The notes beneath the pieces were generated by a model. The model was given only the letters and a program-made list of their open reading frames with translations, searched no databases and had not been told where the DNA came from. From a virus, in the IMG/VR virus record IMGVR_UViG_3300027969_000042, positions 113,546 through 177,545 of that record: a stretch of DNA of 64,000 nucleotides. One strand, 5' to 3'. Shown here one piece after another: positions 16,680 to 51,862 of this stretch (within the stretch, counting starts at the first letter, position 1; each line of letters opens with the position of its first letter). The translations under genes were made by a program, and so were the position numbers.

Positions 16680-17222
16680 TTATTTTAATCTTCTTTCTCT
16701 TCTTGAGAATTTATAACTTTTAGCTTCAAATTCAGGATCAATTCTGTCTTCTTCTTCTAATCTAGGAGCAACTCTTTCAGAACCACCTTGTAAATAAGAA
16801 ACAACTTGATCAACTGTATCAAATTTCTTTCTATCAACGTGGAACTTTTCAGTTTCAGAAGGAAAAATAATTTCTTTTCCATCAAATTCTAATTTGTTGT
16901 TTTGAACTGCATCCGATTCTAATCCTAATGCTTGTGCCAATTCTTTTAATCTACTAGAATAAACATCTTCTTGTTCTTCTTCTTCACCACCTTCAAACTC
17001 TTGTTCAAATGGATTATTTTTAGCCAATGGATTATCTTGTTCACTTGGAACATCATCTGGGATAACACCTGGTCTAGTTGGTCTAGGAGCAGTAGGTCTA
17101 TCTGTATCTGGTCTAGATGGAGTTTCCGTTTCTCTTCTTGTAGGTGCAGGAGCTTGTTCAGGTCCAGCAGTAAACTCTTCATTTATTTTGTCATCTACGA
17201 ATTGATTATACTTTTTAATCAT
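16680..17222 (-). CDS. Pro-rich protein with capsid-targeting-like leader
   Basis: 180 residues. The leader MIKKYNQFVDDKINE ends at a potential gp21-type cleavage site (INE/EF). Residues 18-75 are a Pro/Thr/Arg/Asp-rich disordered stretch, 75-95 are acidic, and the remainder looks folded (LKELAQALGLE..., FHVDRKKFDTVDQVVSYLQGG). The end is basic. The layout suggests a packaged internal protein or a virion-linked protein. No family recognised. Confidence 0.65.
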   Translation of the reverse strand: MIKKYNQFVDDKINEEFTAGPEQAPAPTRRETETPSRPDTDRPTAPRPTRPGVIPDDVPSEQDNPLAKNNPFEQEFEGGEEEEQEDVYSSRLKELAQALGLESDAVQNNKLEFDGKEIIFPSETEKFHVDRKKFDTVDQVVSYLQGGSERVAPRLEEEDRIDPEFEAKSYKFSRRERRLK

Positions 17223-32265: not shown

Positions 32266-35200
32266 ATGTCACAAAATATAGGAACTTTAGTATCATCCGC
32301 AATTCGTCCAAATGATTCATTAGATCAAATTGCCTCAGCATTTGCCAATGAAATAAAAGGTGGTGCTCACGGGTATGAAACGTATGATGATATGAATAAC
32401 ATAATAGAAGCGAGAAGAGAATGGGGAATGTTAGTAACTGTTTATAATGATTCCGATTCTGATCTTAACGGCACATATCAGCTTAAATATGGTAATACTA
32501 ATAACAATGTGTTCGATATATTAGATAATTCAAATTGGGTAAAACTCAATTTAGGTGATAATGCATCAACTGAATGGGTTGACTCAGTAATTTCAATTCT
32601 AAGTATTGAGCCTACATTAGAACCTTTTCCAGGTGACAGATACTTATTAGCAACTATACCAAATTTACTTCCATCAGGTACAAACTGGGATAATTATTCA
32701 TACGGAACAATAATTGTAGAGTATAGTAACATAGGTACATGGAAGCTTACTATTCCAACTAATGGTATGACTGTTAGAGTTGATAATGATGATAATTCAA
32801 TTTATAAATATGAGGGTAATTATCCTACTGGAATATGGAAACAAGAGAAGACAACACAAGTATTTTATATTGAACCAACTTCAATAGGTGGTTTAACCTA
32901 CTCAGTAAGTACAGATCCAATATTTAATGCATATAGTAGAGACTTAATATTTTTAACTAAATTTAATACTGCTAATACTGGTACTGCATCAATCAATATA
33001 AATGGATTAGGATATAGAAATATTAAAATTGCAACTAAAAATGGAGTAAGAGATCTTATAATAAGTGATATTGTAACAAATGGTATTTATAGTTTAACAT
33101 ATAATGGAACTTACTTTCAAATGACTAAACCATTTCCATCAGATAGTTATAACATCGAGTATTATATTGGACCAGGTGAGGTTGTTACTGTTCAAGAATA
33201 TGAACAATATTGGGTTTATGGTGATTTAACAATAGACGGGGGTGTAATGCAAAACTATGGTCATGTAGTTGTGGCAAATGGTTCAGTAAATCTTGTAAAT
33301 AGTGGAGTTTTTAATAATAATGGGTCAGGTGAGTTGATTTTAGTTGACTTATTTAACACTCCTATTTTTAATACAACAGATACTATTCAATTATCATCCG
33401 TGATGACCATAAATGGTCCTTCTGTTTCTGCAATAGTTTTAAACAATAGTTTAACACCGTCACATATAAATTCGGTAAATACTGCAACTGCAAGTTGGAT
33501 TCTTTCTAATAATGGAAGTTCATTTGAGTGGGTTTTACCAACATCAGTTAGTGGTACAGTAAGCCAAGGAGTAACAGGTGCAACAGGACCTCAAGGAGCA
33601 ACAGGACCTCAAGGAGCAACAGGTTCACCAGGAGAAATGGGTGCAACAGGACCTCAAGGAGCAACAGGTTCACCAGGAGAAATGGGTGCAACAGGAGCAG
33701 GTGTTACATCTTCATTTTATTTGAAAGGAACATCTAACTATTCATATGATACAACATCTGATATTTACAGAACTGGATCAATAAATATTGGAACAGGAAC
33801 TGCTACTGATGGTAGATTTGTTGTTTCATCTTCTGGTGGTACGACTTCACTAGTAGTTGATGAAAGTGGAAATATTTATAACTATAGTATTAATCTTAAT
33901 ACTAAGTTTGGTTATCAATCATTAAATTCTGTAACAAGTAGTTTCATATCTATGGGTCAATTTAATGTAGCAATTGGTTATCAATCATTATATTCCACTA
34001 CATCTGGTGCTAGTAATACGGGACTTGGTGTGATTTCATTATATTCAAACACAACTGGATATAATAATACTGCTCTTGGTTTTATTTCATTAAGTCAGAA
34101 TACAACTGGATATAATAATGTTGCGATTGGAAGTAATACATTAAGTAGTAACACAACTGGATATCTTAATACTGCACTTGGAAACGCGGCATTATTTAAA
34201 AATACAACTGGATATTATAATATAGCACTTGGTTTTTATTCGGGTAGTACTATATCAGGAACAGGAGATATAAATACAGGAATTGGTGTAACAAACTCAA
34301 ATAATTCTATCTTTATAGGTTATGATACAAGACCTTCTGCAGGAAATAATACAAATGAAATAGTAATTGGACATGGTGCCACAGGAAATGGTTCTAATAC
34401 AGCTACTTTAGGTAATAATGATATAACAAAAACGTATCTAAAAGGCACAATAAATGGAGATTCTTTTGTAAAAAATGGTGGAACTTCATCTCAATATTTG
34501 ATGGCCGATGGTAGTGTATCATTAGGACCAAGTTTTTCAGGATTGCCTCTTTCAGGAGGAACATTAACAGGTCCATTAAGTGGAACTAGAGCATCTTTTT
34601 CACAATCATCATCTTTAGATACATTATTTGCGTATAATGGAACAACTAATGCAACGGCTATTAGTGGTGGTGCTGCTAATGGTATTAGTGGATATTTTGC
34701 AAATAATTCAACTACAAATCCTGTACTGAAATTATTAGGTTTATCTTCAACTACACTGATTGATGGTAGAAATACTAGTGATGTAACTACTTTTTCTGTA
34801 ACATCAGCTGGTAAAGTAACCGGAACTTCTTTTGTAAAAAGTGGTGGAACTTCATCTGAATATTTGATGGCCGATGGTTCAACAACTATAGTAAATAGAT
34901 TGTTTAATTTCTCTTCTAATACTTACCAAACTGTTTCTGGAACTGTATCAGCTACTTCCTCTGTAATGTCTTCAAGTATATTTAGTACTGGTGATGTATT
35001 AAGAGTGCAAAGTATAATTACTTTAAGTGTTGCTTCTACAGCTACTGCATCAATTTCATACTTTATAAATTCCACCGAATCACTTATTGGTGCCACACAA
35101 ATAGCTACTTATGATGGACCAGTAGGTAATAGATTTATATGGACAGATAGAAATTTCTGGTCAGTAGGAGGAACGTTTAATTCAAGAAATTTTGGAAACT

Positions 35201-35340
35201 CATCACAGACATCGGTATCTAATAGTAGTGCGTCATTAGGATCAGTTGCAATACCAAGTACATTTTATATATTAGTAACTGTAAAAACAACTGGAACTGA
35301 TTTGGCATGTATATCCTCAGTTGTAATACAAAAATTATAA
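32266..35340 (+). CDS. Long tail fibre with collagen-like and YadA-head-like repeats
   Basis: 1024 residues. Residues 1-90 anchor domain; 205-285 contain GPGEVVTVQEYEQYWVYGDL-type beta-roll; residues 435-479 are 15 Gly-X-Y triplets (GAT, GPQ, GSP, GEM) forming a collagen-like trimer stem; about 565-660 hold 17-residue repeats of the type NTALGFISLSQNTTGYN, like the head repeats of trimeric autotransporters. The last 150 residues are probably the receptor-binding tip. A duplicated segment, SFVKNGGTSSQYLMADGSV and SFVKSGGTSSEYLMADGST, flanks a middle domain. No chaperone domain seen. Confidence 0.82.
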   Translation: MSQNIGTLVSSAIRPNDSLDQIASAFANEIKGGAHGYETYDDMNNIIEARREWGMLVTVYNDSDSDLNGTYQLKYGNTNNNVFDILDNSNWVKLNLGDNASTEWVDSVISILSIEPTLEPFPGDRYLLATIPNLLPSGTNWDNYSYGTIIVEYSNIGTWKLTIPTNGMTVRVDNDDNSIYKYEGNYPTGIWKQEKTTQVFYIEPTSIGGLTYSVSTDPIFNAYSRDLIFLTKFNTANTGTASININGLGYRNIKIATKNGVRDLIISDIVTNGIYSLTYNGTYFQMTKPFPSDSYNIEYYIGPGEVVTVQEYEQYWVYGDLTIDGGVMQNYGHVVVANGSVNLVNSGVFNNNGSGELILVDLFNTPIFNTTDTIQLSSVMTINGPSVSAIVLNNSLTPSHINSVNTATASWILSNNGSSFEWVLPTSVSGTVSQGVTGATGPQGATGPQGATGSPGEMGATGPQGATGSPGEMGATGAGVTSSFYLKGTSNYSYDTTSDIYRTGSINIGTGTATDGRFVVSSSGGTTSLVVDESGNIYNYSINLNTKFGYQSLNSVTSSFISMGQFNVAIGYQSLYSTTSGASNTGLGVISLYSNTTGYNNTALGFISLSQNTTGYNNVAIGSNTLSSNTTGYLNTALGNAALFKNTTGYYNIALGFYSGSTISGTGDINTGIGVTNSNNSIFIGYDTRPSAGNNTNEIVIGHGATGNGSNTATLGNNDITKTYLKGTINGDSFVKNGGTSSQYLMADGSVSLGPSFSGLPLSGGTLTGPLSGTRASFSQSSSLDTLFAYNGTTNATAISGGAANGISGYFANNSTTNPVLKLLGLSSTTLIDGRNTSDVTTFSVTSAGKVTGTSFVKSGGTSSEYLMADGSTTIVNRLFNFSSNTYQTVSGTVSATSSVMSSSIFSTGDVLRVQSIITLSVASTATASISYFINSTESLIGATQIATYDGPVGNRFIWTDRNFWSVGGTFNSRNFGNSSQTSVSNSSASLGSVAIPSTFYILVTVKTTGTDLACISSVVIQKL
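33568..33702 (+). repeat. Collagen-like Gly-X-Y repeat
   Basis: 135 bp, 15 triplets: GVT GAT GPQ GAT GPQ GAT GSP GEM GAT GPQ GAT GSP GEM GAT GAG. It forms a trimeric stem in the tail fibre. A 27-bp segment is duplicated. Confidence 0.85.
33960..34240 (+). repeat. 17-residue fibre repeats (51 bp)
   Basis: About five units of the type NTALGFISLSQNTTGYN, with variations, in the tail fibre. Resembles YadA-type head repeats. Confidence 0.75.
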
Positions 35341-37512: not shown

Positions 37513-37537
37513 AAAAGAGGATTATAAATCCTCTTTT
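37513..37537. terminator. Bidirectional terminator
   Basis: AAAAGAGGATT/AATCCTCTTTT between 36807 and Dam genes. Confidence 0.75.
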
Positions 37538-38487
37538 ATTTCTTCTTTGATATTTAACATTTTTCCAGTTTCTGGATCATAATTCATAATCAGTAATTCA
37601 ATACCCTTTTCCTTATCAACTCCCTCTACTTTATTCTTAATAACTGCAGATGGTCTATGAAACTCTTTTGAAGTCCAAAGATACTCGTCTCTTGGTAATA
37701 ATTCTTCTAATAAAGGAAAATAGTAATATGATAATGACCATCTACTTTTAGAACTCTTTAATAATTCTAATAAACGTCTATGTGAAGAAATCCCAAAGGT
37801 GTTCTCTGTGTCACAACCATACCAAAATAATCTTCTACCATCATCATCATTTTTTAAGTCGTTAAAACGAGCGTAAGGTGGGTCTAAATACATGTATGTA
37901 TCGTCTGCATCATACATTGTGATAACATCTTCAAAGTCTAAATTATGAAAGTCTGTAATTTTTTGTAACCTTTCAGTGTATTTGTTTTTTTCTAATTTAT
38001 TGATTAGAATTAAAAGATTTAATTTGTTTGTTTTTTTCTTAAATCCAGTAAAACCACCGCCTCTTGGATAAACAGAACTAAAGCTTGATGTAATTAGGAA
38101 TGCGTAAATCGCGCCTACTTTAAAATCACCAATCTCAAAGTTCATATCATCTAAGAAATCATTAGTAACATAAGTTCTATAAATAGCTTTAAAGAAATCC
38201 CATTTTTTATCTAATTCAGTTTCAGTAGTGTAAAGTAAACCACCTGGTGCTAATAAAGATTTAAGTTCTACTAAAAAATCTTGTGGTTGAGAACAACATT
38301 TCATTAGATTCGCTTGATGTCTGTTTCTATCATTAAATACAACATTAGTAAACTCTAAATTAGAATCTAAATATATTGCGAATGAACCAGAAAATGGTTC
38401 GATGTATGTTTTACAATCCGTTGGAATGTTAGGTGTGATAAAGGATTGAAAGTTTGCCTTGCCCCCAAAATAGCTTATGACGCTCAT
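37522..38487 (-). CDS. dam: DNA adenine N6-methyltransferase (Dam-type)
   Basis: 321 residues. The SAM motif reads SYFGGKANFQ and YIEPFSGSFAIYLDSN, the catalytic motif DPPYARF. These define a class D12 adenine methylase. It likely protects phage DNA from restriction or marks it. A LAGLIDADG endonuclease gene lies directly upstream with a 15-base gap. Recognition site cannot be read from sequence. Confidence 0.88.
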   Translation of the reverse strand: MSVISYFGGKANFQSFITPNIPTDCKTYIEPFSGSFAIYLDSNLEFTNVVFNDRNRHQANLMKCCSQPQDFLVELKSLLAPGGLLYTTETELDKKWDFFKAIYRTYVTNDFLDDMNFEIGDFKVGAIYAFLITSSFSSVYPRGGGFTGFKKKTNKLNLLILINKLEKNKYTERLQKITDFHNLDFEDVITMYDADDTYMYLDPPYARFNDLKNDDDGRRLFWYGCDTENTFGISSHRRLLELLKSSKSRWSLSYYYFPLLEELLPRDEYLWTSKEFHRPSAVIKNKVEGVDKEKGIELLIMNYDPETGKMLNIKEEIKEDL

Positions 38488-38502: not shown

Positions 38503-39336
38503 TTAAGATTTTCTATATTTAATCTTTGTTTTACTTATAGAGATTGCTCTATCAAAAGTTTCTTTTTTTCTATCTAAATAAATAGTTGCATCTTTATAAA
38601 AAAATTCATAAAATCTTTCTATGTCACTAAAAGATCCCCAGTCTATAACACTATATGTTCCTTTTGGACATCTTATCTTATTCTTTTTTATTCCACAATA
38701 ATTCACTAATTTATCAACATAGACTTCTATAAAGTCTTTACTACCTGAACATATATTTACTTGACCTCTATCAGTTGTATCTCTGGAACCTTCTCTCTTT
38801 TTATGTATGGATATACATCCATCACCATCAAATACACCTCTCATAAAGTGACGTTCTAAATTTTTAGGTATTTCAGGATATCTAACTATCATTGTTTTTA
38901 CCGGATAAATACCTAAATTAAATAAATCACTTTTCATTTTTTCGGATGTGACGGTCAAACTACTACAATTACTACCGTCATTTTTAGTAAAAATATTACC
39001 TTCAAATTTTATATACTCTTTAAACTTATAAAGTATATCAGTATCTTTTTGTATTATACTAACTTGTGGAGTTCTACTATTGATATTACCATCTGCAACT
39101 ATAAATCCTAAAAAGTATGCTTTGTCTTCTGTATCTATATTTTCAAAGTAATCTTCATTTAGATTGTACTTTTTAACTTTATTTTTTATAATGTCACCAT
39201 TATCAATAATTACTTTTTTATAATGTCTATCTGAAATACCATATTCATTTATTATGTCCTTTCTTTTAATACCATTTTGTCTTTTAAAAACTATCTCTAG
39301 TTCTTCTTCCTTTGTAAGTTCTTTTAATTTTCTCAT
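38503..39336 (-). CDS. LAGLIDADG homing endonuclease
   Basis: 277 residues. The two LAGLIDADG helices are YFLGFIVADGN and HFMRGVFDGDGC. The N-terminus (LTKEEELEIVFKRQNGIKRK) looks like a helix-turn-helix. It is free-standing, upstream of the Dam gene and divergent from 39451. Its leader on the DNA (AT-rich ATATTATATATAAAAATT on the + strand just before the start) is the same as that of the EDxHD endonuclease at 55964. Selfish gene; target probably a nearby phage locus. Confidence 0.85.
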   Translation of the reverse strand: MRKLKELTKEEELEIVFKRQNGIKRKDIINEYGISDRHYKKVIIDNGDIIKNKVKKYNLNEDYFENIDTEDKAYFLGFIVADGNINSRTPQVSIIQKDTDILYKFKEYIKFEGNIFTKNDGSNCSSLTVTSEKMKSDLFNLGIYPVKTMIVRYPEIPKNLERHFMRGVFDGDGCISIHKKREGSRDTTDRGQVNICSGSKDFIEVYVDKLVNYCGIKKNKIRCPKGTYSVIDWGSFSDIERFYEFFYKDATIYLDRKKETFDRAISISKTKIKYRKS

Positions 39337-39450: not shown

Positions 39451-40590
39451 ATGCTTATATATAAAGGGATTGAATACAAACCGGGTAGTAAAGTAATTGC
39501 AAATGTAGATGGTATCCAAATTGAAGGTAAAATTCAACAAGAGGACCCATACTACTATATTTGTCATAATGAACCCGAAAAATCAGGAAATCAAGCCCAC
39601 GATAGACTAGGATATAGTTACTCTTGGGCATTTAAGCAAGAAGGTGATGGAACACTTACCGATGGTGTTGTTATATTAGGTCTAAATGGTGTTGAAAACT
39701 TAAAAGATAAATTTGAAATATCCCAAAAGTTACTTACTTTTTTTCAAAGTAAAAGAATTGATATTCTTTCGATAGAAGATAAAAGGATGTTTCCAGATTA
39801 TAATAAGTTTGATATATCAGAAACCAAAGGAATGATTAAATTAGTAGATTCTACAAAAAATAGAAGTACTGATTTAAAATTTGGAAGATTTTTAAATTCA
39901 TTCTCTAAACAATATAAAGACACATTTAAAATGGAGTCTTTATTTGATAATAAAAAAGTAGAGAAAACTCATAATGATTATGTATCATATCAAACTGGTG
40001 ATCACATTAGAGTAGAGTATTTAACAGGTAAACAAATCTTAGAAGGGTATAAAAGAGAAAATTATCAAGCATCTAAATCATCATTAGGTGGTTCTTGTAT
40101 GACAGATAAACTAAGTTATCTAGATCTTTATACAAAAAATCCTAATAAGGTAAGTATGGTTGCAATTAAAGTGTTTGATAAATTTGTTGGTAGATGTTTA
40201 GTATGGACTACTAATTGTGGGCAAAAGATAATGGACAAACCTTACATTTGTGATGAATGGGTTTTATCTAAATTTGACGAAGTTAGAGAAAAAGAAGGAT
40301 ATTTATCATTTCAAGATGTTATAAACTCATCAATAAAATTATTTATTGATTTGGATACCACTGATATTGATGAATGGCCGTATTTAGATACATTTATGTA
40401 CTTAACTTTTCATCAAAAGAAAGTTATTGTTGAACAACCAGTAGAAGTTCTTACATTAAATCTATTTAATCGTAAAACAGAGGTGTTAGAAGATGATTAT
40501 TCTAAAGGTATATTACAATCTTATCCACCAAACGGTTATTCTATGAGACTTAGAGCAACTAATGGTAGATATGAAGATAATAGAAATTAA
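39451..40590 (+). CDS. SCM-motif phage protein, paralogue of 26228-27292
   Basis: 379 residues. Shares LGGSCMTDKLSYLDLYTKNP ... VGRCLVWTT with the 26228 protein. The N-terminus here is different: a small beta-barrel-like start (MLIYKGIEYKPGSKVIANVD) and no packaging leader. Function unknown; the conserved Ser-Cys-Met could be catalytic or structural. Bracketed by a divergent promoter region and a GAAA-loop terminator. Confidence 0.62.
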   Translation: MLIYKGIEYKPGSKVIANVDGIQIEGKIQQEDPYYYICHNEPEKSGNQAHDRLGYSYSWAFKQEGDGTLTDGVVILGLNGVENLKDKFEISQKLLTFFQSKRIDILSIEDKRMFPDYNKFDISETKGMIKLVDSTKNRSTDLKFGRFLNSFSKQYKDTFKMESLFDNKKVEKTHNDYVSYQTGDHIRVEYLTGKQILEGYKRENYQASKSSLGGSCMTDKLSYLDLYTKNPNKVSMVAIKVFDKFVGRCLVWTTNCGQKIMDKPYICDEWVLSKFDEVREKEGYLSFQDVINSSIKLFIDLDTTDIDEWPYLDTFMYLTFHQKKVIVEQPVEVLTLNLFNRKTEVLEDDYSKGILQSYPPNGYSMRLRATNGRYEDNRN

Positions 40591-40618
40591 AAAAAGCTTA
40601 GAGAAATCTAAGCTTTTT
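40591..40618. terminator. Bidirectional terminator, GAAA loop
   Basis: AAAAAGCTTAGA/TCTAAGCTTTTT with GAAA tetraloop between SCM and NADAR genes. Confidence 0.75.
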
Positions 40619-41117
40619 TGTCTTTAAATAAAACATCAAAAAGATTTGGTTTTTTAACACCATTTAATTCACTTCTTATATCCATTAGAAGTTTACCTAA
40701 TTTATTTTTACCTTTACCAACACACTTTTCACAAGTACATTGACCCCAGAAATTATCGTGCCAATAATTTCCCTCAATAATAGTAACATCACCGGTTGAA
40801 AGTAACATTTCTTTTAATGCTTCATCTTTGAACTTTTCTTTAACTGCCCATTCCATAAATCCAAATTTCTTTGAATCCCACTCTGAACGTACTTTTATAA
40901 CCTTACCTAATTGTTTTGCCTTACCAGGTGCCATATTAGAAACTAGTTCTCTAAAATCAGCAGATGTATAGTATTTACCATCAATCATTTGATCATTGTT
41001 ACACTTCATTGCAACATAATATGTCTCAACACTATTATAAGTAATACCTTGGTATTCTATTTTACACGGATAGAAGTTTGATAGAAATCCATATCTACCA
41101 TCAAATTTTGTTATCAT
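40608..41117 (-). CDS. NADAR (YbiA-like) ADP-ribose/NAD-associated protein
   Basis: 169 residues. Signature pieces: FDGRYGFLSNFYPC, YNSVETYYVAMKC, KFGFMEWAVKEKF, GNYWHDNFWGQC and NKLGKLLMDIRSEL. These match the NADAR/YbiA fold. Members act on N-glycosidic bonds of riboflavin intermediates or remove ADP-ribose from guanine in DNA, as antitoxins to DarT. A phage copy could undo host ADP-ribosylation defence or manage NAD. It lies just after the tmRNA gene. A CTCEKC pair may bind metal. Confidence 0.85.
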   Translation of the reverse strand: MITKFDGRYGFLSNFYPCKIEYQGITYNSVETYYVAMKCNNDQMIDGKYYTSADFRELVSNMAPGKAKQLGKVIKVRSEWDSKKFGFMEWAVKEKFKDEALKEMLLSTGDVTIIEGNYWHDNFWGQCTCEKCVGKGKNKLGKLLMDIRSELNGVKKPNLFDVLFKDKKA

Positions 41118-41133
41118 AATTTTATATATTTAT

Positions 41134-41164
41134 AAAAAAACCCACTCATTGAGTGGGTTTTTTT
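41134..41164 (-). terminator. tmRNA terminator
   Basis: CCCACTCA/TGAGTGGG with A/T runs, five bases past the tmRNA 3' end. Confidence 0.75.
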
Positions 41165-41168
41165 GTTG

Positions 41169-41545
41169 TGGAGATGACGTTGTACTGCCCAACGTGTCTT
41201 TCTCAGTTAAAAATAACTATTCGTTTACAGGTTTAGTAAGTTTTTCTAAGTCTTACAAAATAATTAGTTTTTGAATCTCAAACTACTAATAAAAAGGTTT
41301 CACTTTTAAACTGGTGACCACAGCTGTAGAATTTTTGGTGTATTAGTCTTATTTGATTAAGCTACTACTAAATCTCTATTAGAGATCAAATTGTTTTGTA
41401 AGCAAGCTACTAAATCTTCACTTGTTCCTACTTGATTAACGTTGCCGTTTAAAATTGTATCAACTAATTTATTAATCGGTCATTGTAGACCACCCGATAC
41501 CTGCATAATCACTCTTAGTCCGCAAATCAATTCTGAAACACCCCC
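41169..41545 (-). ncRNA. ssrA: tmRNA (ssrA)
   Basis: 377 nt. On the minus strand the 5' end GGGGGTG pairs with CATCTCC near the 3' end to form a 7-bp acceptor stem, followed by A and no encoded CCA. The 5' part TTTCAGAATTGATTTGCGG resembles E. coli ATTCTGGATTCGAC. Helix 2 is long: AAGAGTGATTATGCAGGT pairs with ACCTGTA and TAGTTATTTTT. The T-arm stem is CGTTG/CAACG with a 7-nt loop, GGCAGTA, unlike the usual TTCRA. A tag frame lies at 41357-41446: GNVNQVGTSEDLV... ending in RDLVVA and TAA. Later pseudoknot-like helices (ACTAATA/TATTAGT, GTAAG/CTTAC) follow. Promoter-like TCTAATATATA is upstream and a strong terminator lies 5 bases past the 3' end. Confidence 0.85.
41357..41446 (-). other. Predicted tmRNA tag reading frame
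   Basis: 29 codons from GGC to TAA. The peptide ends in DLVVA, hydrophobic-Ala as in ClpP degradation tags such as ALAA. The coding DNA contains a partial duplication, GATTTAGTAGCTTGCTTA and GATTTAGTAGTAGCTTAA, which may have lengthened the tag. The resume codon is a guess; a shorter tag is possible. Confidence 0.55.
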
Positions 41546-41612: not shown

Positions 41613-42890
41613 TTATTCCAGAACGTTATCAGTAAACCACTTAATAACTAGTTCTTTTGGTATCACATCACCATAATACTCTGTATATTCTTCACCACCT
41701 TTTTTAATGACATATGATGTATCATCGGTGTTTATACTATCAAAGTATTTAACATACTCTTCAAAGCTCTTAAAACGCATCCCTAATACACTGACCGAGT
41801 CGTCATTAAAGATCATCATCTTATAATCATCTGGACTAATATCAATACCAAATAGGTTACCTAAATATGTATTTAATTTCTTAACATCTTTAAAATCAAA
41901 TCTAACATCTTTCTGACCTTCGATTTGAACTAAAATATCATCTAAAATTGTTACTTTAATATCAACATCTTCAAACCAAGTATTAAATACAAGTGTATCT
42001 GTATTATATGTATCATACTCTAATGTATTTGTGTGAAGTAAGTCATATTTATTTAAAATACTTTTAACTTCTTTTACAACACTCTTATTAGAGAAACGAT
42101 GTCTTGGTGCAATTTTATATTTTGGTTCAAAATAAGTTACTTTTCTTTCAGTTGGTAGGTTCTCCCAATCAATTTTACAAGCAGCTTCTGCAACTTTTTT
42201 AGTATAAGATAAATCTACATACTCTGTTTTATAGTGTTCATTCCATCCACCTGCACTAATATTAGTACATTCTGGAATAATATCTAAGAAAGTGGCAGTA
42301 TCTGTATAATAAGCATTTGGGTCTGGTTTAGACTCAACACCTAAATTGGTTAGTTCATCTGATAAAGCATCTGCAAAATCAATAGAACAACAAAATCTAC
42401 CTTTCTGTCTTAGAACAACAGAACCGGTTTGTTTTCTATCAAATGCAACTGCTCTTTTAAATTTTTTGAAGAATTCTGGGTTTGCTTTTAAAGCATTTTG
42501 TGACCCCCATAAACCACCACTTAAAATTGGCTCTTCTCCTAAGAAGAAATAATAAGTTCCAGGTATTCCTTTAGAAATCATATATAATAAAATAGACATT
42601 CCTAATTTATTATCACCACCTAATATGGTTGTTTCATCAGTTTTAATAATATCACCTTCAATAACGTGATTTACCTTTTCATATTTAGTACAATAAGTAT
42701 CTAAGTGAGTTGTAAATAATGTTTCTGAATTACCTAGTTGAATATAATAGTTGCCAATAGAATCTTTTTTATATCCTTTTGGTAGATATTTTTCTAATTT
42801 GGTTTCATCACCATAAGGAATTGTATATTCAGTTAGTTTCAAAAAAGTATCCTTTATATCTAAAGGATTTATACTTTCATTTTTTGCCAT
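41613..42890 (-). CDS. M20/M28-like zinc peptidase
   Basis: 425 residues. Metal-ligand pattern: FTTHLDTYC, ILGGDNKLGMSILLYM, FFLGEEPILSGG, YTDTATFLDIIPECTNISAG and a late H in WNEHYKTEYVDLS. These match co-catalytic two-zinc exopeptidases. It is paralogous to the 43510 protein. C-terminal 120 residues are a lid or second domain. Cytoplasmic; likely amino acid recycling or processing of a specific peptide. Confidence 0.75.
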   Translation of the reverse strand: MAKNESINPLDIKDTFLKLTEYTIPYGDETKLEKYLPKGYKKDSIGNYYIQLGNSETLFTTHLDTYCTKYEKVNHVIEGDIIKTDETTILGGDNKLGMSILLYMISKGIPGTYYFFLGEEPILSGGLWGSQNALKANPEFFKKFKRAVAFDRKQTGSVVLRQKGRFCCSIDFADALSDELTNLGVESKPDPNAYYTDTATFLDIIPECTNISAGGWNEHYKTEYVDLSYTKKVAEAACKIDWENLPTERKVTYFEPKYKIAPRHRFSNKSVVKEVKSILNKYDLLHTNTLEYDTYNTDTLVFNTWFEDVDIKVTILDDILVQIEGQKDVRFDFKDVKKLNTYLGNLFGIDISPDDYKMMIFNDDSVSVLGMRFKSFEEYVKYFDSINTDDTSYVIKKGGEEYTEYYGDVIPKELVIKWFTDNVLE

Positions 42891-42920: not shown

Positions 42921-43508
42921 TTAAAATGGACTTTCATCATCTTCTCCAAAATCTTCATCAGTATCATCATTTAATCCTTCATCATAATAGAATCCAAATT
43001 CTAAGGTTTGACCTCTTTGATTTTCCCACATATCAAATTCTGAATCATATTGAGGTAATATATCCATTTTTAATTTATTTAAAAGATCAAAAACATTTAT
43101 TACATCACTTAATCTTTCTCTATGACCCATAGAACATCTAATAGATAAATCTAAATTATCATTAGTAATAGATACATTTTCAATACCTTTATTTTTAAAC
43201 ATACCTCTTAATAGATATTTTAAGTGTTCCATATCATCATCTTCAATATCTTCATCACTTAAATCTGGATCTCTATCACCATCTTTATTATCATAATGAT
43301 CAAAGTTATGAGCTATTCCACCATAATACTCACTATCATAAAAATCTTCATCATCATCAGATATTTCACCAGACATATCAAAACGAGATGGTAAAGAGTT
43401 ACTCTTTTTTCTAGAACCACCTGCCCAATCATCATTCCAATCTTGATCTGTACCTTCCCAGGCATCATCATCAACTCTTTCTATAAATCTTTTATACTTT
43501 TGTATCAT
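42921..43508 (-). CDS. Acidic protein with capsid-targeting-like leader
   Basis: 195 residues. Leader MIQKYKRFIERVDD. The body is very rich in Asp/Glu with a small folded part, DMEHLKYLLRGMFKNKGIEN... It lies between the two peptidase genes on the same strand, one base from 43510. A packaged internal protein is inferred from the leader only. Confidence 0.6.
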   Translation of the reverse strand: MIQKYKRFIERVDDDAWEGTDQDWNDDWAGGSRKKSNSLPSRFDMSGEISDDDEDFYDSEYYGGIAHNFDHYDNKDGDRDPDLSDEDIEDDDMEHLKYLLRGMFKNKGIENVSITNDNLDLSIRCSMGHRERLSDVINVFDLLNKLKMDILPQYDSEFDMWENQRGQTLEFGFYYDEGLNDDTDEDFGEDDESPF

Positions 43509-43509
43509 A

Positions 43510-44886
43510 TTATTTTAATTCTATTTTGATGGTTGTTTCGTCAAAAACAACGTAAGGGTCTGCGGTTCTGTGCTTATATAATAAACCTTGTACTTGTGAT
43601 AATGTATCAAAGATAGTTTTAACATCAGCAAGATCTAAATCTATTTTAATAAATATTTTATCTTGAACACCAACTACTTTAACATCTAAACCAAATATAG
43701 ATTTTTTAACAGTATCAATTAAAGTTTTATGTTTTCTTAATAATTCTTCATTTATACCTACTTTTCTTACAGCTGGTAATTGTGACCAATTTACTTTTAA
43801 AGAAGCTTTTGCCAATTTCTCTAAATAAGTCATATTTTGTATCTCTCTAAATGTATGCTCGTTATTATATCCAACCGATACGTTAGTACATTCTGATATA
43901 TCATCAATAAATGATGCAGAATCCGTAAATACTCCCGTTGGATCAGTAGATAAATTTAATCCACTTTTATTATATTCTTTACAAAGTGCGGTAGCAAATT
44001 CATTTGAACAACAAACTCTACCATATTGAGAAGTAATAACCGAACCGGTTTTTCTTCTATCAAAAGAAACACATTTTTTAACATTTTTTAGAAACTCAAA
44101 TGAACTATATTCACTTGCCAAATCTCTTGAACCAATACCACCTCTTTCTTCCCCAATAAAGAAGTAATAAATACCTGGTATTTTGTTTTCCATCATATAT
44201 AACATTACTGCTACTCCTGCTTTATCATCTGCACCTAATATAGAAGTACCATCAGTATAAATATACTCATCACCATCTTCTATTTTTGATAATAATTTAG
44301 TAGGTAATTGAGATCTATCTGCAGTATCTAAGTGAGATGTAAACATTGTAGTATCATCTCCTGCGATTACTTTATAATAATTACCAAATTTATCTAATTC
44401 TAGGTCTGGTAAAAACTCTAAAACCTCAGTTTCGTGACCCATAGGATAAGTTTTTGTTACCAATGATAAGAATGTTGAACGAACATCTTTAGGATTATAA
44501 ACAAATGGTTTATGTTCAATTGGTGTACCAACTGGTTGTACTGCAACTTTTACTCCTTTTTTAAGATTTACAATTGTAGTAGAGAATTTTCTAATACTTT
44601 CTTCATCATAAACACCCGGAAAATAACTTCTCAAAAATGTTCCAATTTTGATATATTGTCTTCTTCCACCTATTATAGCATCAAAGAAATAATCTGAATC
44701 AGAGATATCCAATCTTGATATATTCATATCATTCGCATATTTAGACCTAGGATCTGCCATCCAGTTAAGTTCATATGCAATATAATCATCATGATCATCT
44801 TCCATTGTAGTTAGAAGTTTTACTAACCTAGCAGAAAATGCAATCTTTATTTCATCTTCATATTTCATTTTATAATCATTTGCCAT
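43510..44886 (-). CDS. M20/M28-like zinc peptidase with N-terminal extension
   Basis: 458 residues. The N-terminal 130 residues are an extra domain (FFDAIIGGRRQYIKIGTFLR). The peptidase part has FTSHLDTADR, ILGADDKAGVAVMLYMM, FFIGEERGGIGSRDL, DSASFIDDISECTNVSVGYN and EHTFREIQNM. All expected metal ligands appear present. Similar in order to 41613-42890, so a duplication followed by divergence. Promoter-like element at 44908-44918. Confidence 0.75.
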   Translation of the reverse strand: MANDYKMKYEDEIKIAFSARLVKLLTTMEDDHDDYIAYELNWMADPRSKYANDMNISRLDISDSDYFFDAIIGGRRQYIKIGTFLRSYFPGVYDEESIRKFSTTIVNLKKGVKVAVQPVGTPIEHKPFVYNPKDVRSTFLSLVTKTYPMGHETEVLEFLPDLELDKFGNYYKVIAGDDTTMFTSHLDTADRSQLPTKLLSKIEDGDEYIYTDGTSILGADDKAGVAVMLYMMENKIPGIYYFFIGEERGGIGSRDLASEYSSFEFLKNVKKCVSFDRRKTGSVITSQYGRVCCSNEFATALCKEYNKSGLNLSTDPTGVFTDSASFIDDISECTNVSVGYNNEHTFREIQNMTYLEKLAKASLKVNWSQLPAVRKVGINEELLRKHKTLIDTVKKSIFGLDVKVVGVQDKIFIKIDLDLADVKTIFDTLSQVQGLLYKHRTADPYVVFDETTIKIELK

Positions 44887-44919: not shown

Positions 44920-45312
44920 TTATATAGTGACTTCGTGTGCATTTTTATAATCAACCATAACTTGACCATCATTCATACCTGGTTTTTTACTAACAAATCT
45001 ACGTTTACAGTAAACTACAGTTGCTTTATCAGTACCTTTTGCCTTACTATTATCTTTTGCAATTTCAGCAAATCTTCTAATTAATTCAGGAGTTGGTATA
45101 TTATCTCTAACAATGATAACAACATGACTTCCAGGAACACCTTTTACGTGCATCCATATATCGTCATTATCAGCAACATTAAACGTTAGATGGTCATTAG
45201 ACTTTGCATCTTTACCCAGATGTACTAAAAATCCATCAATTTCCATCTTCTTAATATTTGGAAACTTATCTTTCTTGGATTCATTAAACTGTGAATATTT
45301 CTTTAATCTCAT
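44920..45312 (-). CDS. Stand-alone NFACT-R (RqcH-type) domain with capsid-targeting-like leader
   Basis: 130 residues from MRLKKYSQFNES; a longer frame from 45351 adds a hydrophobic stretch and is less likely. After the FNE leader comes GFLVHLGKDAKSNDHLTFNV, DIWMHVKGVPGSHVVI, then KAKGTDKATVVYCKRRFVSK and PGMNDGQVMVDY, the NFACT-R domain of RqcH/Rqc2/NEMF. In RqcH this domain helps bind stalled 50S-peptidyl-tRNA; the N-terminal and coiled-coil parts are missing here. It sits directly downstream of the capsid gene. With its leader it may be packaged. Confidence 0.8.
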   Translation of the reverse strand: MRLKKYSQFNESKKDKFPNIKKMEIDGFLVHLGKDAKSNDHLTFNVADNDDIWMHVKGVPGSHVVIIVRDNIPTPELIRRFAEIAKDNSKAKGTDKATVVYCKRRFVSKKPGMNDGQVMVDYKNAHEVTI

Positions 45313-45337
45313 AATGTATATATTATTTATATAAAAC

Positions 45338-45365
45338 AAAAAAAGACCCAATTGGGTCTTTTTTT
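45338..45365 (-). terminator. Capsid gene terminator
   Basis: GACCCAATTGGGTC palindrome with A/T runs between capsid and NFACT-R genes. Confidence 0.75.
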
Positions 45366-45384
45366 GAAATATTATAACTAATAA

Positions 45385-47112
45385 TTAGTTAAGTAATCCT
45401 AGTGAATCAGAAACTTGGATAGTCATGAACTGTTTTTGTGGGTACCAACCAACTTCAGTTACTGCATATCTTGATCTAAGTAACATTCTTGGTGCGAATG
45501 TAGCCTCAGAGATGATGCTAATTGACTGAGCCATTAAGTAAGGTACGAAAATAATACCTGGTTGATCAGGATTATTTTTTCTTCCTAAAACGATTCTGTT
45601 ATCGTTATATCTCATGTATGGATCAACATAGATAGAGATGTCTCCGATTGAACCTACTGGGTACAATTGACCTTGAGAGTTCATTTTAGATTTTAATGGA
45701 TTGATAGTATAACCTGCAATATCTTGTAATGCTGCAGCAAGACCCCCGTTTGTGATTAAGTATTGAGCTGGCCCAACACGTCCTTCTGTTGCGATGTAGT
45801 TAGAAGCATGAGCAATTTTCGTGATCAATTTTCTTTGTACAGCGTGAGTAGTCTCACCACCAACAGTATTTGCACTTCCTGCATATTTAGTATCTAAGTC
45901 AAAGATTGTTTGACCAGAAATAGCAGATGAGAAAGTAGTTCCAGCTGCAGGAGCAGATTGTCTATTTAAAGCACCCATTTCAAAGATTTTGTTAACAATT
46001 TGTTTAGAAATTGTTTGAGACAATTCATTAACAAGGATTGATTCCATTTTTTGAACGATATCCATACCTGTGTTAGCTTTAATGTCCTCAATTTCAGTTC
46101 TTCTAAGTGCAGAAGATACTTCAATAGTACCAACAGCAACTGTTTTAGAAGAGATTTTTGGTCCGATAACACCAGCATAACTATCATCATCTGTTTGTCT
46201 ATCCATTGGATAAGCACCAGCTGCTGATGAAGTTGGTCCATACCAGTTTGCAGAGAAACCAGGAATGTGATCTTCTAAAGCAGAAACTAAAGAGATTGCC
46301 TTAGTTCCTGAAACTGTTGCACCAGCAAGATTACTGATAGTCTCAGTCATTGCTTGAGTTGCTCCAAATGTATTTTTTTGAACATCAAAAGCCCATGCAT
46401 TTGTGTTTTGAACACCAGCGTTAATACCTGCAGCAGTATTATTTTGTCTATATGCTTTAAAGATTGGTAAACCATCAATACGAGAAAATCCTAAGAATTC
46501 AAGTTGATTAGCTTTATTTGATGGTTCTGCTTGAACATACCATCCTGTTGCAGCAGCAGTATTTGTAGTAACCCATAGTCTACCACCATATAAACCACCT
46601 TGTGTTTCTGTGATACCAAGATTTGCAAATTGTGCTCTTAAATTAGTAATAATAGTAGAAATATTATCACAGCTAAATTTGAAAACTTGTGGTCTCTCAT
46701 CAGATGCACCTAAACGTGTACCGTCATATGCGAAGTCGATATATAATAAATCGATTTTCGGACCTGGTGTTGGTTTAACAGCAACTAAGTCAAGACCAAT
46801 TGTTTGAGCAGCAATTTTCATTGCAACTGGTAACAAGTTTTGACCAACATCACCTGAACCAATTGTTCCTGCTGTTGTAAGTGTAGCTAAACTACCACCT
46901 ATTGTTTGTCCTGCATAAGCAGCTGGTTGAGCAGCTAAAACTGAACCCATACCTGCAACGTTTGAAGCGTTCACGTATGCGTTTTCGTTGATTGAGTGAA
47001 ATTCAGCATATTCTGACATCCATTCTACTCTATCACCTGTAACTCCCATGTTTTCCAACACTGGAGACCATTTTTTCATGGCTTTTTGATTATCTATTCT
47101 AATGTGTGACAT
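45385..47112 (-). CDS. gp23: Major capsid protein, gp23-like
   Basis: 575 residues. MSHIRIDNQKAMKKWSPVLE... corresponds to the gp23 propeptide. A candidate gp21-type cleavage site is FHSINE/NAYVN at residue 43. Downstream LLPVAMKIAAQTIGLDLVAV and PGPKIDLLYIDFAY match the gp23 region that follows the cleavage site. The rest shows typical HK97-like capsid features (e.g. AGSANTVGGET..., VDPYMRYNDNRIVLGRK). GC content is visibly higher than neighbours, as expected for a highly expressed gene. Terminator at 45338-45365. Confidence 0.9.
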   Translation of the reverse strand: MSHIRIDNQKAMKKWSPVLENMGVTGDRVEWMSEYAEFHSINENAYVNASNVAGMGSVLAAQPAAYAGQTIGGSLATLTTAGTIGSGDVGQNLLPVAMKIAAQTIGLDLVAVKPTPGPKIDLLYIDFAYDGTRLGASDERPQVFKFSCDNISTIITNLRAQFANLGITETQGGLYGGRLWVTTNTAAATGWYVQAEPSNKANQLEFLGFSRIDGLPIFKAYRQNNTAAGINAGVQNTNAWAFDVQKNTFGATQAMTETISNLAGATVSGTKAISLVSALEDHIPGFSANWYGPTSSAAGAYPMDRQTDDDSYAGVIGPKISSKTVAVGTIEVSSALRRTEIEDIKANTGMDIVQKMESILVNELSQTISKQIVNKIFEMGALNRQSAPAAGTTFSSAISGQTIFDLDTKYAGSANTVGGETTHAVQRKLITKIAHASNYIATEGRVGPAQYLITNGGLAAALQDIAGYTINPLKSKMNSQGQLYPVGSIGDISIYVDPYMRYNDNRIVLGRKNNPDQPGIIFVPYLMAQSISIISEATFAPRMLLRSRYAVTEVGWYPQKQFMTIQVSDSLGLLN

Positions 47113-49578: not shown

Positions 49579-49986
49579 ATGCGGTTTTTTATGATCCTAT
49601 CAAGAGAGATAAATGTAAAAATCACTGAGTCAAATTACAACTATTATGATGATTTAGGATATGATGTATATATAAGTGAAGAAATTATAATTCCGGTTGA
49701 ATTATTACCAAAAGGATCACATTACAAAATCAAGTGTAAATGTGACAGTTGTGGAATTGAAAAAGAAGTAATCTATAAGAACTACTTAAAATATGATAAT
49801 GATTGGGGAGATTATTATTGTAGAAAGTGTTCCGAAGTTAAAAGAAAAGAAACATTAAGAAAAAATTTCGGAGTTGATTATCCGATACAGAATAAAAAAG
49901 TTTTAGAAAAAATGAAAAATACATTAGTACAGAAGTATGGAGTAGATAACATTTCTAAAAACAAAAAAAAATTAAATAATGAATAA
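49579..49986 (+). pseudogene. Truncated homing endonuclease remnant
   Basis: 135 residues resembling the N-terminal half of the 20592 HNH protein: zinc-ribbon-like CDSCGIEKE...CRKCSEVK, then NFGVDYPIQNKKVLEK and QKYGVDNISKN. It stops before any nuclease motif and its last codons overlap the start of the RNase R gene (AATGAATAA). Probably a decayed endonuclease that arrived with the RNase R cassette. It may now serve only as a translated leader. Confidence 0.65.
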
Positions 49987-51862
49987 AATTAAAGAAGATA
50001 GTGTTTTTGAGGGCACTATCGATTTCGCAAACAGCGGAAATGCCTCAATAAATATAGGAGATAAAAATCTCTTCATATTTAAGAAAAATACACTTAACTC
50101 ACTTAATGGTGATAAAGTTAAGGTTAAAACGATAACTAAGAACAATAAAATTGAAGCCGAAGTTATTGAAGTTCTTGAAAGATTCAGAACACAATTTGTT
50201 GGTAAAGTACAAATAAATAAAGAAAACAAAAGACTAATCTTTGTAGTACCAGACAGTCAGAAAATAGGGGTCGACTTTTATATAAAAGGAGAAAACGATG
50301 CACTACAAGATCAAAAGGTTCTTGTAGAACTAATCGACTGGGAACCAGGAACAAAATCACCAAAAGCAAAAATAGTAGAGATACTTGGTAGTTCAGGTGA
50401 AAATAATGCAGAAATGAACTCAATTATGTATGAGTACGGTTTACCAAACAACTTTCCTTTAATGGTAGAAGCCGAAGCGGAATTGATAGACTTCACAATT
50501 CCCGAATCAGAAATCAGTAATAGACGAGATTTAAGAAATATCACAACATTTACAATTGACCCAGTCGACGCCAAAGATTTTGACGACGCTCTTTCGGTTA
50601 ATATACTTGATGATAATACAGTAGAAGTAGGCATACATATTGCAGACGTTTCACACTATGTTAAAGAAGGTGGGATAATTGATGAAGAAGCTATTAAAAG
50701 AGCAACATCAGTTTACTTAGTTGATAGATGTGTACCAATGTTACCAGAAAGATTGAGTAACGGTGTATGTTCATTAAGACCTAATGAAGATAAACTTTGT
50801 TTCTCAGTTATAGTTAAGTTAGATAGTGAAGGAAAACTATTAGATAAATGGTTTGGAAAAACTATAATACATTCAGATAGAAGATATTCTTATGAAGAAG
50901 CTCAAGAAATAATTGAAGGTAAAGAAGGAGATTTCAAAACCGAAATATTACTATTAGATACTATTGCTAAGAAGATGAGAAAACAAAGAATCAACGATGG
51001 TTCTATTGAAATGGGTGGTATAGAAGTTAGATTCAAATTAGAACCAACTACTAAGAAACCTATCGGAGTTTTCTTTAAAGAACAGAAAGATGCAAATAAA
51101 CTAATTGAAGAGTATATGTTACTTGCAAATAAATTAGTTGCGAAACTTCTTTATGATGCTAAGTATCACAATGTCTATAGAGTACATAGTACTCCCAATG
51201 TTGAAAAGTTAGAAGCACTTTCTTTAATATGTAAAAACTTTGGTTATACTTTAGATGTTGTTGAGAATACACAAGATTTAAAAAAATCTATAAATGAACT
51301 GGTTGCTGACATAAAAGGTAAACCAGAAGAAAATATGATTGAAACTTTAATTACAAGATGTATGTCTAAAGCAAGCTATACAATAGTAAACTCTGGACAC
51401 TATGGATTAGGATTTACTCATTATTCTCACTTTACATCACCAATTAGAAGATATCCTGACTTAATTACTCATAGAGTTCTATTAGACTTTTTGAATAAGA
51501 AGTCAAATGGAAGTCCTCAAAAGATTGAAGGTATGGCAAAATGGTGTTCTGAAAGAGAAATCTTGGCAGCAAAAGCTCAAAGAGACTCTATTAAATATAA
51601 ACAGATTGAATTCTTAGAAGATAAAATCGGACAAGTATTTGATGGAATTATATCAGGAGTAACTGATTGGGGAATGTATGTTGAGCTTATTGAAAGTAAA
51701 TGTGAAGGTATGGTTAGATATAATGGTAATCATAAAGTAGATGCAGAAAACTATACAGTGAATTTAAAATCAGGTGGATCAGTAAGATTAGGTGATGAAG
51801 TAAAAGTTATTGTAAAAGCAGTTGATCTAGACAGAAAACAAATCGATTTTGAATTGTTCTAA
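49979..51862 (+). CDS. rnr: RNase R/RNase II-family exoribonuclease
   Basis: 627 residues. Two N-terminal cold-shock-like parts, then the RNB catalytic domain: FTIDPVDAKDFDDALS (metal-binding Asp cluster), EVGIHIADVSHYVKEG, YLVDRCVPMLPERLSNGVCS, GFTHYSHFTSPIRRYPDL, and a C-terminal S1 domain (GIISGVTDWGMYVELIESKC). It is shorter than E. coli RNase R (813) and lacks its Lys-rich tail. RNase R degrades structured RNA and, with tmRNA, faulty mRNA. The sequence style is that of Bacteroidota. It lies on the + strand inserted in a - strand head module. Confidence 0.9.
   Translation: MNKIKEDSVFEGTIDFANSGNASINIGDKNLFIFKKNTLNSLNGDKVKVKTITKNNKIEAEVIEVLERFRTQFVGKVQINKENKRLIFVVPDSQKIGVDFYIKGENDALQDQKVLVELIDWEPGTKSPKAKIVEILGSSGENNAEMNSIMYEYGLPNNFPLMVEAEAELIDFTIPESEISNRRDLRNITTFTIDPVDAKDFDDALSVNILDDNTVEVGIHIADVSHYVKEGGIIDEEAIKRATSVYLVDRCVPMLPERLSNGVCSLRPNEDKLCFSVIVKLDSEGKLLDKWFGKTIIHSDRRYSYEEAQEIIEGKEGDFKTEILLLDTIAKKMRKQRINDGSIEMGGIEVRFKLEPTTKKPIGVFFKEQKDANKLIEEYMLLANKLVAKLLYDAKYHNVYRVHSTPNVEKLEALSLICKNFGYTLDVVENTQDLKKSINELVADIKGKPEENMIETLITRCMSKASYTIVNSGHYGLGFTHYSHFTSPIRRYPDLITHRVLLDFLNKKSNGSPQKIEGMAKWCSEREILAAKAQRDSIKYKQIEFLEDKIGQVFDGIISGVTDWGMYVELIESKCEGMVRYNGNHKVDAENYTVNLKSGGSVRLGDEVKVIVKAVDLDRKQIDFELF

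What the first reader, a model, noticed from the sequence alone, without database searches (positions are those of the whole stretch)
40608..41117. NADAR protein as a possible anti-defence factor
NADAR proteins can remove ADP-ribose from DNA guanine and can act in NAD metabolism. Host DarT-type or NAD-depleting systems block phages. Its place beside tmRNA and peptidase genes is an accessory region.
Basis: inference. Interest (0 to 1): 0.62.

Follow-up and report, generated by a model that had tools for sequence, protein, structure and literature searches.

The report
Phage NADAR enzyme beside hidden tmRNA
A T4-like phage carries a real NADAR enzyme, probably able to strip ADP-ribose from guanine in DNA or RNA, as a fixed gene of its lineage next to a ribosome-rescue RNA (tmRNA) that standard software misses; an anti-defence role is plausible, but nothing here shows that its target is the DarT toxin.

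Summary
The 169-aa ORF at 40608-41117 (-) is a NADAR protein: Pfam PF08719 89.6 bits, confident AlphaFold model, PDB matches to E. coli YbiA and an ADP-ribose-bound NADAR. It keeps the family's catalytic Glu and Lys. At the subfamily-defining position it has Glu (YbiA type), not the Asp of DarT1 antitoxins or the His of T4 gp30.3.
The tmRNA beside it is also real, though ARAGORN and Rfam miss it: paired acceptor and T stems with many compensatory changes, G3-U70, and a conserved 27-30-aa tag. Its alphaproteobacterial-type T-loop (GGCAGTA) probably explains the miss.
The region is not accessory. It is the head-gene block of a T4-like phage clade that includes two of the largest known phages. 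Among contigs found by capsid gene alone, 50 of 51 tmRNA loci with enough room have the NADAR.
Guanine de-ADP-ribosylation as protection from host ADP-ribosylation is likely. A specific anti-DarT1 role is only possible: published YbiA and T4 NADARs act in vitro but do not rescue DarT1 in cells. Neighbouring genes (tmRNA, NFACT-R, RNase R) point at least as much to RNA or translation as to DNA.

The parts
40608..41117 (-). NADAR gene, 169 aa, YbiA-type catalytic set E31/K38/E115, CxCxxC loop at C127/C129/C132, clade-specific insertion at about residues 41-52
41169..41545 (-). one-piece tmRNA gene (G1 to discriminator A73; CCA not encoded)
41357..41446 (-). tmRNA tag reading frame GNVNQVGTSEDLVACLQNNLISNRDLVVA*, 29 aa
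41177..41195 (-). tmRNA T-arm ACGTTG-GGCAGTA-CAACGT (alphaproteobacterial-type T-loop)
41131..41165 (-). inverted repeat with T tail after the tmRNA (terminator-like), about 15 nt before the NADAR start codon
   Evidence: sequence
40590..40619 (-). terminator-like hairpin at the end of the NADAR gene
41613..42890 (-). peptidase-like protein (PHROG 4191), paralogue of 43510-44886; just upstream of the tmRNA
42921..43508 (-). conserved acidic protein of unknown function (cluster c2)
43510..44886 (-). M28-like peptidase (PHROG 4191)
44920..45351 (-). stand-alone NFACT-R domain protein (PF05670, the RNA-binding domain of RqcH/NFACT proteins)
45385..47112 (-). T4-like major capsid protein (PF07068)
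37522..38487 (-). D12-class adenine methyltransferase, conserved downstream neighbour of the NADAR
49979..51862 (+). RNase R-like exoribonuclease (RNB + cold-shock + S1), found in 65 of 80 capsid-selected loci

Best explanation
The ORF encodes an active-site-intact, YbiA-type NADAR hydrolase that cleaves the N-glycosidic link between ADP-ribose and guanine in nucleic acid. It serves as a standing (core) protection of the phage against host enzymes that ADP-ribosylate its DNA or RNA. Shown here: family, fold, catalytic residues, purifying selection, core-gene status, fixed position after a tmRNA. Inferred: substrate (guanine-ADPr, from characterised relatives), purpose (counter-defence), and whether the target is DNA or RNA.
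For: NADAR domain far above cut-off. AlphaFold model with mean pLDDT 90.5 whose only significant PDB matches are YbiA 2b3w (E=1.2e-8) and ADP-ribose-bound NADAR 8bau (E=2.9e-6). E31, K38 and E115 invariant in 26 phage homologues; these correspond to the published catalytic Glu, Lys and last-strand acid (PMC11543638). All four E. coli and phage NADAR subtypes tested in the literature remove ADPr from guanine in DNA (PMC11125620), and all NADARs tested do so in RNA (PMC11833690). dN/dS 0.10-0.31. Retained in 50 of 51 testable capsid-selected loci, through inversions and gene insertions, and in 635-kb and 642-kb phages.
Against: No direct assay. Catalytic residues are shared by NADARs with other proposed substrates (riboflavin intermediates, soluble ADPr derivatives). 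Core status in one clade does not say which host system is countered. No ADP-ribosylation gene sits beside it (no DarT or Macro in the record). The linkage to the tmRNA was seen in one phage clade only, so it may be inherited gene order.
Confidence: 0.5

Rival explanations
1. Orphan antitoxin aimed at DarT1 in particular: it undoes guanine ADP-ribosylation of phage DNA by host DarTG1.
For: DarTG1 blocks phages by guanine ADP-ribosylation and NADARs reverse it (PMC11543638). [quoted passage not shown] title seen, text not held).
Against: Subfamily residue is Glu, not the Asp of DarT1-linked NADARs. E. coli YbiA (Glu) and T4 NADAR (His) did not rescue DarT1 toxicity in cells. The gene is fixed in the clade rather than patchy, as a specific anti-defence gene might be.
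Confidence: 0.2
2. RNA or translation repair: it removes ADP-ribose from guanines of RNA (mRNA, rRNA, tRNA or the tmRNA itself) as part of a phage ribosome-rescue block with tmRNA, RNase R and NFACT-R.
For: NADARs are the only hydrolases found to reverse guanosine ADP-ribosylation in RNA (PMC11833690). tmRNA lies upstream of every NADAR of this clade where sequence is held; NFACT-R and RNase R lie in the same block. Inverted blocks keep tmRNA, NADAR and methyltransferase together while NFACT-R and peptidases stay behind.
Against: Other genes are inserted between tmRNA and NADAR in several members (gaps to 1,836 nt). A terminator-like hairpin separates them in the window. Linkage is confined to one NADAR clade; other phage tmRNAs examined had no NADAR nearby. 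No known host toxin with guanine-in-RNA specificity is tied to these hosts.
Confidence: 0.25
3. It processes soluble NAD-derived signals or ADPr derivatives made by host immune systems, or NAD-salvage by-products.
For: Proposed as the main role of phage NADARs on contextual grounds (PMC9503650). Two Nudix genes in the record.
Against: No NAD-salvage family and no Macro domain in the record; no such gene among the conserved neighbours.
Confidence: 0.2
4. YbiA-like N-glycosidase of riboflavin-pathway intermediates.
For: Closest solved structure is E. coli YbiA, annotated in the literature as an N-glycosidase of early riboflavin intermediates (PMC11125620).
Against: No GTP cyclohydrolase II in the record; YbiA itself also removes guanine-ADPr; no evident benefit to a lytic phage.
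Confidence: 0.05

Closest known systems
E. coli YbiA (PDB 2b3w) and the YbiA subfamily of NADARs
   Same: Fold, Glu/Lys catalytic pair, Glu in the last strand, stand-alone domain
   Different: About 30% identical in the structural alignment; 11-residue insertion modelled as a hairpin after the K38 helix; CxCxxC in place of the GDGGHG loop; phage-borne, next to a tmRNA
DarT1-linked NADAR antitoxins (BC4488 subfamily, DarTG1)
   Same: NADAR fold and Glu/Lys pair; guanine-ADPr hydrolysis expected
   Different: Glu instead of Asp at the third catalytic position; no DarT in the record
T4 gp30.3 phage NADAR
   Same: NADAR superfamily in T4-like phages; active on guanine-ADPr in vitro (literature)
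   Different: gp30.3 has His at the third position and lacks the WHDNFWG-C-CxxC motif in the alignment
NADARs of the huge phages LR745206 (635 kb) and LR756502 (642 kb)
   Same: 59% and 56% identity; same clade; same hidden tmRNA about 490 and 355 nt upstream; same gene block
   Different: Other gene insertions between tmRNA and NADAR; much larger genomes
Bacterial and phage tmRNA (ssrA; Rfam RF00023, RF01849)
   Same: Acceptor stem with G3-U70, T-arm, tag ORF ended by a stop; T-loop equals the RF01849 alphaproteobacterial consensus GGCgGUA
   Different: One-piece gene order with an alpha-type T-loop, 27-30-aa tag without the ALAA ending, below Rfam cut-offs, not seen by ARAGORN, CCA not encoded

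Membership tests
NADAR superfamily (PF08719) | Profile match above the curated cut-off | tested here: met
   89.6 bits against 35.1, E=3.5e-25
NADAR superfamily (PF08719) | YbiA/NADAR fold | tested here: met
   AF2 model pLDDT 90.5, pTM 0.81; significant PDB matches 2b3w and 8bau only
NADAR superfamily (PF08719) | Catalytic Glu and Lys seven residues apart (E88/K95 in C7 NADAR) | tested here: met
   E31 and K38, invariant in 26 sequences; published residues
NADAR superfamily (PF08719) | Hydrolysis of guanine-linked ADP-ribose | not testable with these tools
   needs an enzyme assay
YbiA subfamily | Glu in the last strand (E125 of P. nicotianae NADAR) | tested here: met
   E115 aligns with it and is invariant
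DarT1-linked (BC4488) NADAR | Asp at that position | tested here: not met
   Glu115
DarT1-linked (BC4488) NADAR | DarT gene adjacent | tested here: not met
   no PF14487 in the record
T4 gp30.3-type phage NADAR | His at that position | tested here: not met
   Glu115; T4 30.3 has His in the same alignment
Anti-DarTG1 phage NADAR (2025 report, text not held) | Protects phage or cells from DarT1 | not testable with these tools
   needs rescue and plaque assays; source paper not held
tmRNA | 7-bp acceptor stem with G3-U70 | tested here: met
   7/7 pairs in 64 of 66 distinct copies (the other two are parsing slips); GU pair in 16 of 16 aligned rows
tmRNA | Paired T-arm and helix 2 supported by compensatory change | tested here: met
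   8 of 19 pairs changed on both sides, 28 cells against 8.4 in shuffles, slid controls 0-7
tmRNA | Tag reading frame closed by a stop codon | tested here: met
   27-30-aa tag, conserved residues, in frame in nearly all copies
tmRNA | Recognised by Rfam or ARAGORN | tested here: not met
   (best tmRNA model 7.9 bits against 50); other phage tmRNAs with the same T-loop do reach RF00023
tmRNA | Pseudoknots and SmpB-dependent trans-translation | not tested
   pseudoknots not modelled; no SmpB gene in the record, so host SmpB would be needed

The most novel reading that the evidence does not exclude
The tmRNA and the NADAR form a working pair in a phage ribosome-rescue block (with RNase R and a stand-alone NFACT-R): host ADP-ribosylation of RNA stalls translation, the phage tmRNA with its own long tag frees the ribosomes, and the NADAR repairs ADP-ribosylated guanines in RNA.
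Probability: 0.13. Interest if true: 0.75.

Novelty: new variant of a known kind. Interest (0 to 1): 0.42.

Why it matters
It gives a clean test case for an open question: what phage NADARs do outside DarT operons. A YbiA-type NADAR that is fixed for a whole T4-like phage clade, rather than patchy, suggests a broad threat or a built-in need. The tmRNA found while checking is missed by ARAGORN, which the huge-phage survey (PMC7162821) used for its tmRNA calls, so tmRNA carriage in these phages, including two of the largest known, has probably been undercounted.

Tried and rejected
(a) 'Non-canonical, unheard-of T-loop': first thought new because ARAGORN failed; rejected after Rfam RF01849 showed the same T-loop GGCgGUA as the consensus of alphaproteobacterial tmRNA. 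(b) tmRNA-NADAR as a general phage association: rejected; 43 other loci with that T-loop had no NADAR in the stretch held, and the tmRNA-linked NADARs are one clade (100/98 support). (c) Attenuator or leader hits near 41134-41204: only the terminator hairpin, all below gathering scores. (d) NAD-salvage, riboflavin, KptA, Macro, DarT or SmpB genes in the record: none. (e) A relaxed T-arm pattern with wrong spacing found nothing and was corrected. (f) Genome scan for the T-arm: two matches, one tmRNA in a MAG contig, one chance match without tmRNA support.

Full report
What is there. The ORF at 40608-41117 on the minus strand (169 aa) is a NADAR protein by profile (PF08719, 89.6 bits; PHROG 1017), by fold (AlphaFold pLDDT 90.5; only significant PDB matches YbiA 2b3w and ADP-ribose-bound NADAR 8bau) and by active site. 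It is the only NADAR in the 177,545-bp virus record. dN/dS against seven close relatives is 0.10-0.31.

Which kind of NADAR. The literature separates subfamilies by one residue in the last strand: Glu in YbiA, Asp in the DarT1-linked BC4488 group, His in T4 gp30.3 (PMC11543638, PMC11125620). In an alignment with YbiA, 8bau, T4 gp30.3 and about 50 phage homologues the window protein has Glu there (E115 by the numbering), together with E31 and K38. So it is YbiA-type. Two features set its clade apart from other phage NADARs: an insertion of about 11 residues after the K38 helix, modelled as a hairpin at residues 43-50, and V instead of Q in the E31-K38 helix (YYVAMK against AYQAAK). A CxCxxC loop after WG is shared with many other phage NADARs and lost in some members. 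The clade is supported at 100/98.

The neighbour that software misses. ARAGORN finds no tmRNA in the window and Rfam reaches only 7.9 bits for a tmRNA model. The minus strand from 41545 to 41169 is nevertheless a tmRNA. The segment is conserved upstream of the NADAR in the closest NADAR loci. Among 66 distinct copies the acceptor stem pairs 7/7 in 64. On a 16-row alignment 8 of 19 named pairs change on both sides, in 28 cells against 8.4 in shuffles and at most 7 in slid controls. The G3-U70 pair, the alanine identity element (general knowledge), never changes there. A tag frame of 27-30 aa, G(N/K)(V/T)NEVGTREDLVAALQNNM..., stays open and conserved. The T-loop GGCAGTA departs from the tRNA T-loop; it equals the consensus of Rfam's alphaproteobacterial tmRNA, whose genes are permuted. 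Here it sits in a one-piece gene. Distant relatives (L179 type: GTCAGTN; L138: an ordinary TTCGAGT loop) suggest the ordinary loop was ancestral, an inference from few copies.

Is it an accessory region? No. The order protease - capsid - NFACT-R - peptidase - c2 - tmRNA - NADAR - methyltransferase runs through the clade. To avoid selecting on NADAR, loci were fetched by T-arm pattern: 50 contigs, 46 with NADAR downstream on the same strand at 50-1,836 nt; in the other four the stored stretch ends too soon, and two of those contigs show the NADAR in other loci. They were also fetched by capsid protein: 80 loci (the best 80 of 201), tmRNA in 62, NADAR in 53, no NADAR without tmRNA, and 50 of 51 tmRNA loci with at least 2.6 kb of downstream sequence have NADAR; L215 is the exception. 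In inverted arrangements (L163, L177, L189, L190) tmRNA, NADAR and methyltransferase move together. Two huge phages of 635 and 642 kb carry the same pair; phages of that size are assigned to Bacteroidetes hosts, and the authors called tmRNAs with ARAGORN (PMC7162821). The host of the window phage itself was not determined.

How it most likely works. All NADARs tested so far remove ADP-ribose from guanine in DNA and RNA. With catalytic residues intact, the same is the best guess here (inferred). Its purpose is most likely protection from host ADP-ribosylation (inferred). Against a narrow DarT1 reading: YbiA and T4 NADAR failed to rescue DarT1 toxicity in cells, and the record has no DarT, Macro or NAD-salvage family. 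A 2025 paper on phage orphan antitoxin-like enzymes against DarTG1 exists (title; not held), so the anti-DarTG1 idea itself is not new. The block also holds a stand-alone NFACT-R domain (PF05670) and an RNase R-like enzyme (65 of 80 loci). From general knowledge, RNase R works with tmRNA, and NFACT proteins work in ribosome quality control. That makes an RNA or translation target at least as plausible as DNA, but linkage in a single clade with generally conserved gene order is weak evidence of a shared function.

Novelty. Phage NADARs are common (563 phage records at E<=1e-5; survey in PMC9503650) and phage tmRNAs are known (402 of 18,146 phages by ARAGORN, PMC9004378). What is new, as far as the held library shows, is the fixed tmRNA-NADAR neighbourhood, the insertion-bearing YbiA-type clade, and a one-piece tmRNA with an alpha-type T-loop that standard tools miss.

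Noticed in passing
window 41169-41545 (-): One-piece tmRNA with alphaproteobacterial-type T-loop GGCAGTA and a 29-aa tag, missed by ARAGORN and below Rfam cut-offs; ARAGORN finds no tmRNA in any of 80 related loci although 62 carry it.
   Followed up: yes
L220-L256, L119, L121, L122, L125, L126, L128: Other phage contigs (and one MAG contig) with tmRNAs of the same GGCAGT T-loop. Of the loci scanned with Rfam most reach RF00023, RF01849 or RF04321, but ARAGORN reports a tmRNA in only two of these 43 loci.
   Followed up: partly
window 44920-45351 (-): Stand-alone NFACT-R domain protein (PF05670, 51.7 bits) between capsid and peptidase genes, kept in most of the clade.
   Followed up: partly
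window 49979-51862 (+): RNase R-like exoribonuclease (RNB 360 bits) inside the T4-like head-gene block, in 65 of 80 capsid-selected loci.
   Followed up: partly
window 41613-42890 and 43510-44886 (-): Two paralogous M28-like peptidases flanking an acidic protein, directly upstream of the tmRNA; role unknown.
   Followed up: no
L215 (tmRNA on the - strand near 16923) and L206: Divergent tmRNAs of the clade with another T-loop (CATCGGA/CATCGAA as parsed); L215 has no NADAR in the stretch although room is ample. Good outgroup for the order of events.
   Followed up: no
window 38503-39336 (-): LAGLIDADG/HNH-type endonuclease gene (PF14528, PHROG 4645) beside the methyltransferase; present in some relatives only, so probably a mobile homing gene.
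   Followed up: no
window 32266-35340 (+): 1,024-aa tail-fibre-like protein with a collagen repeat.
   Followed up: no
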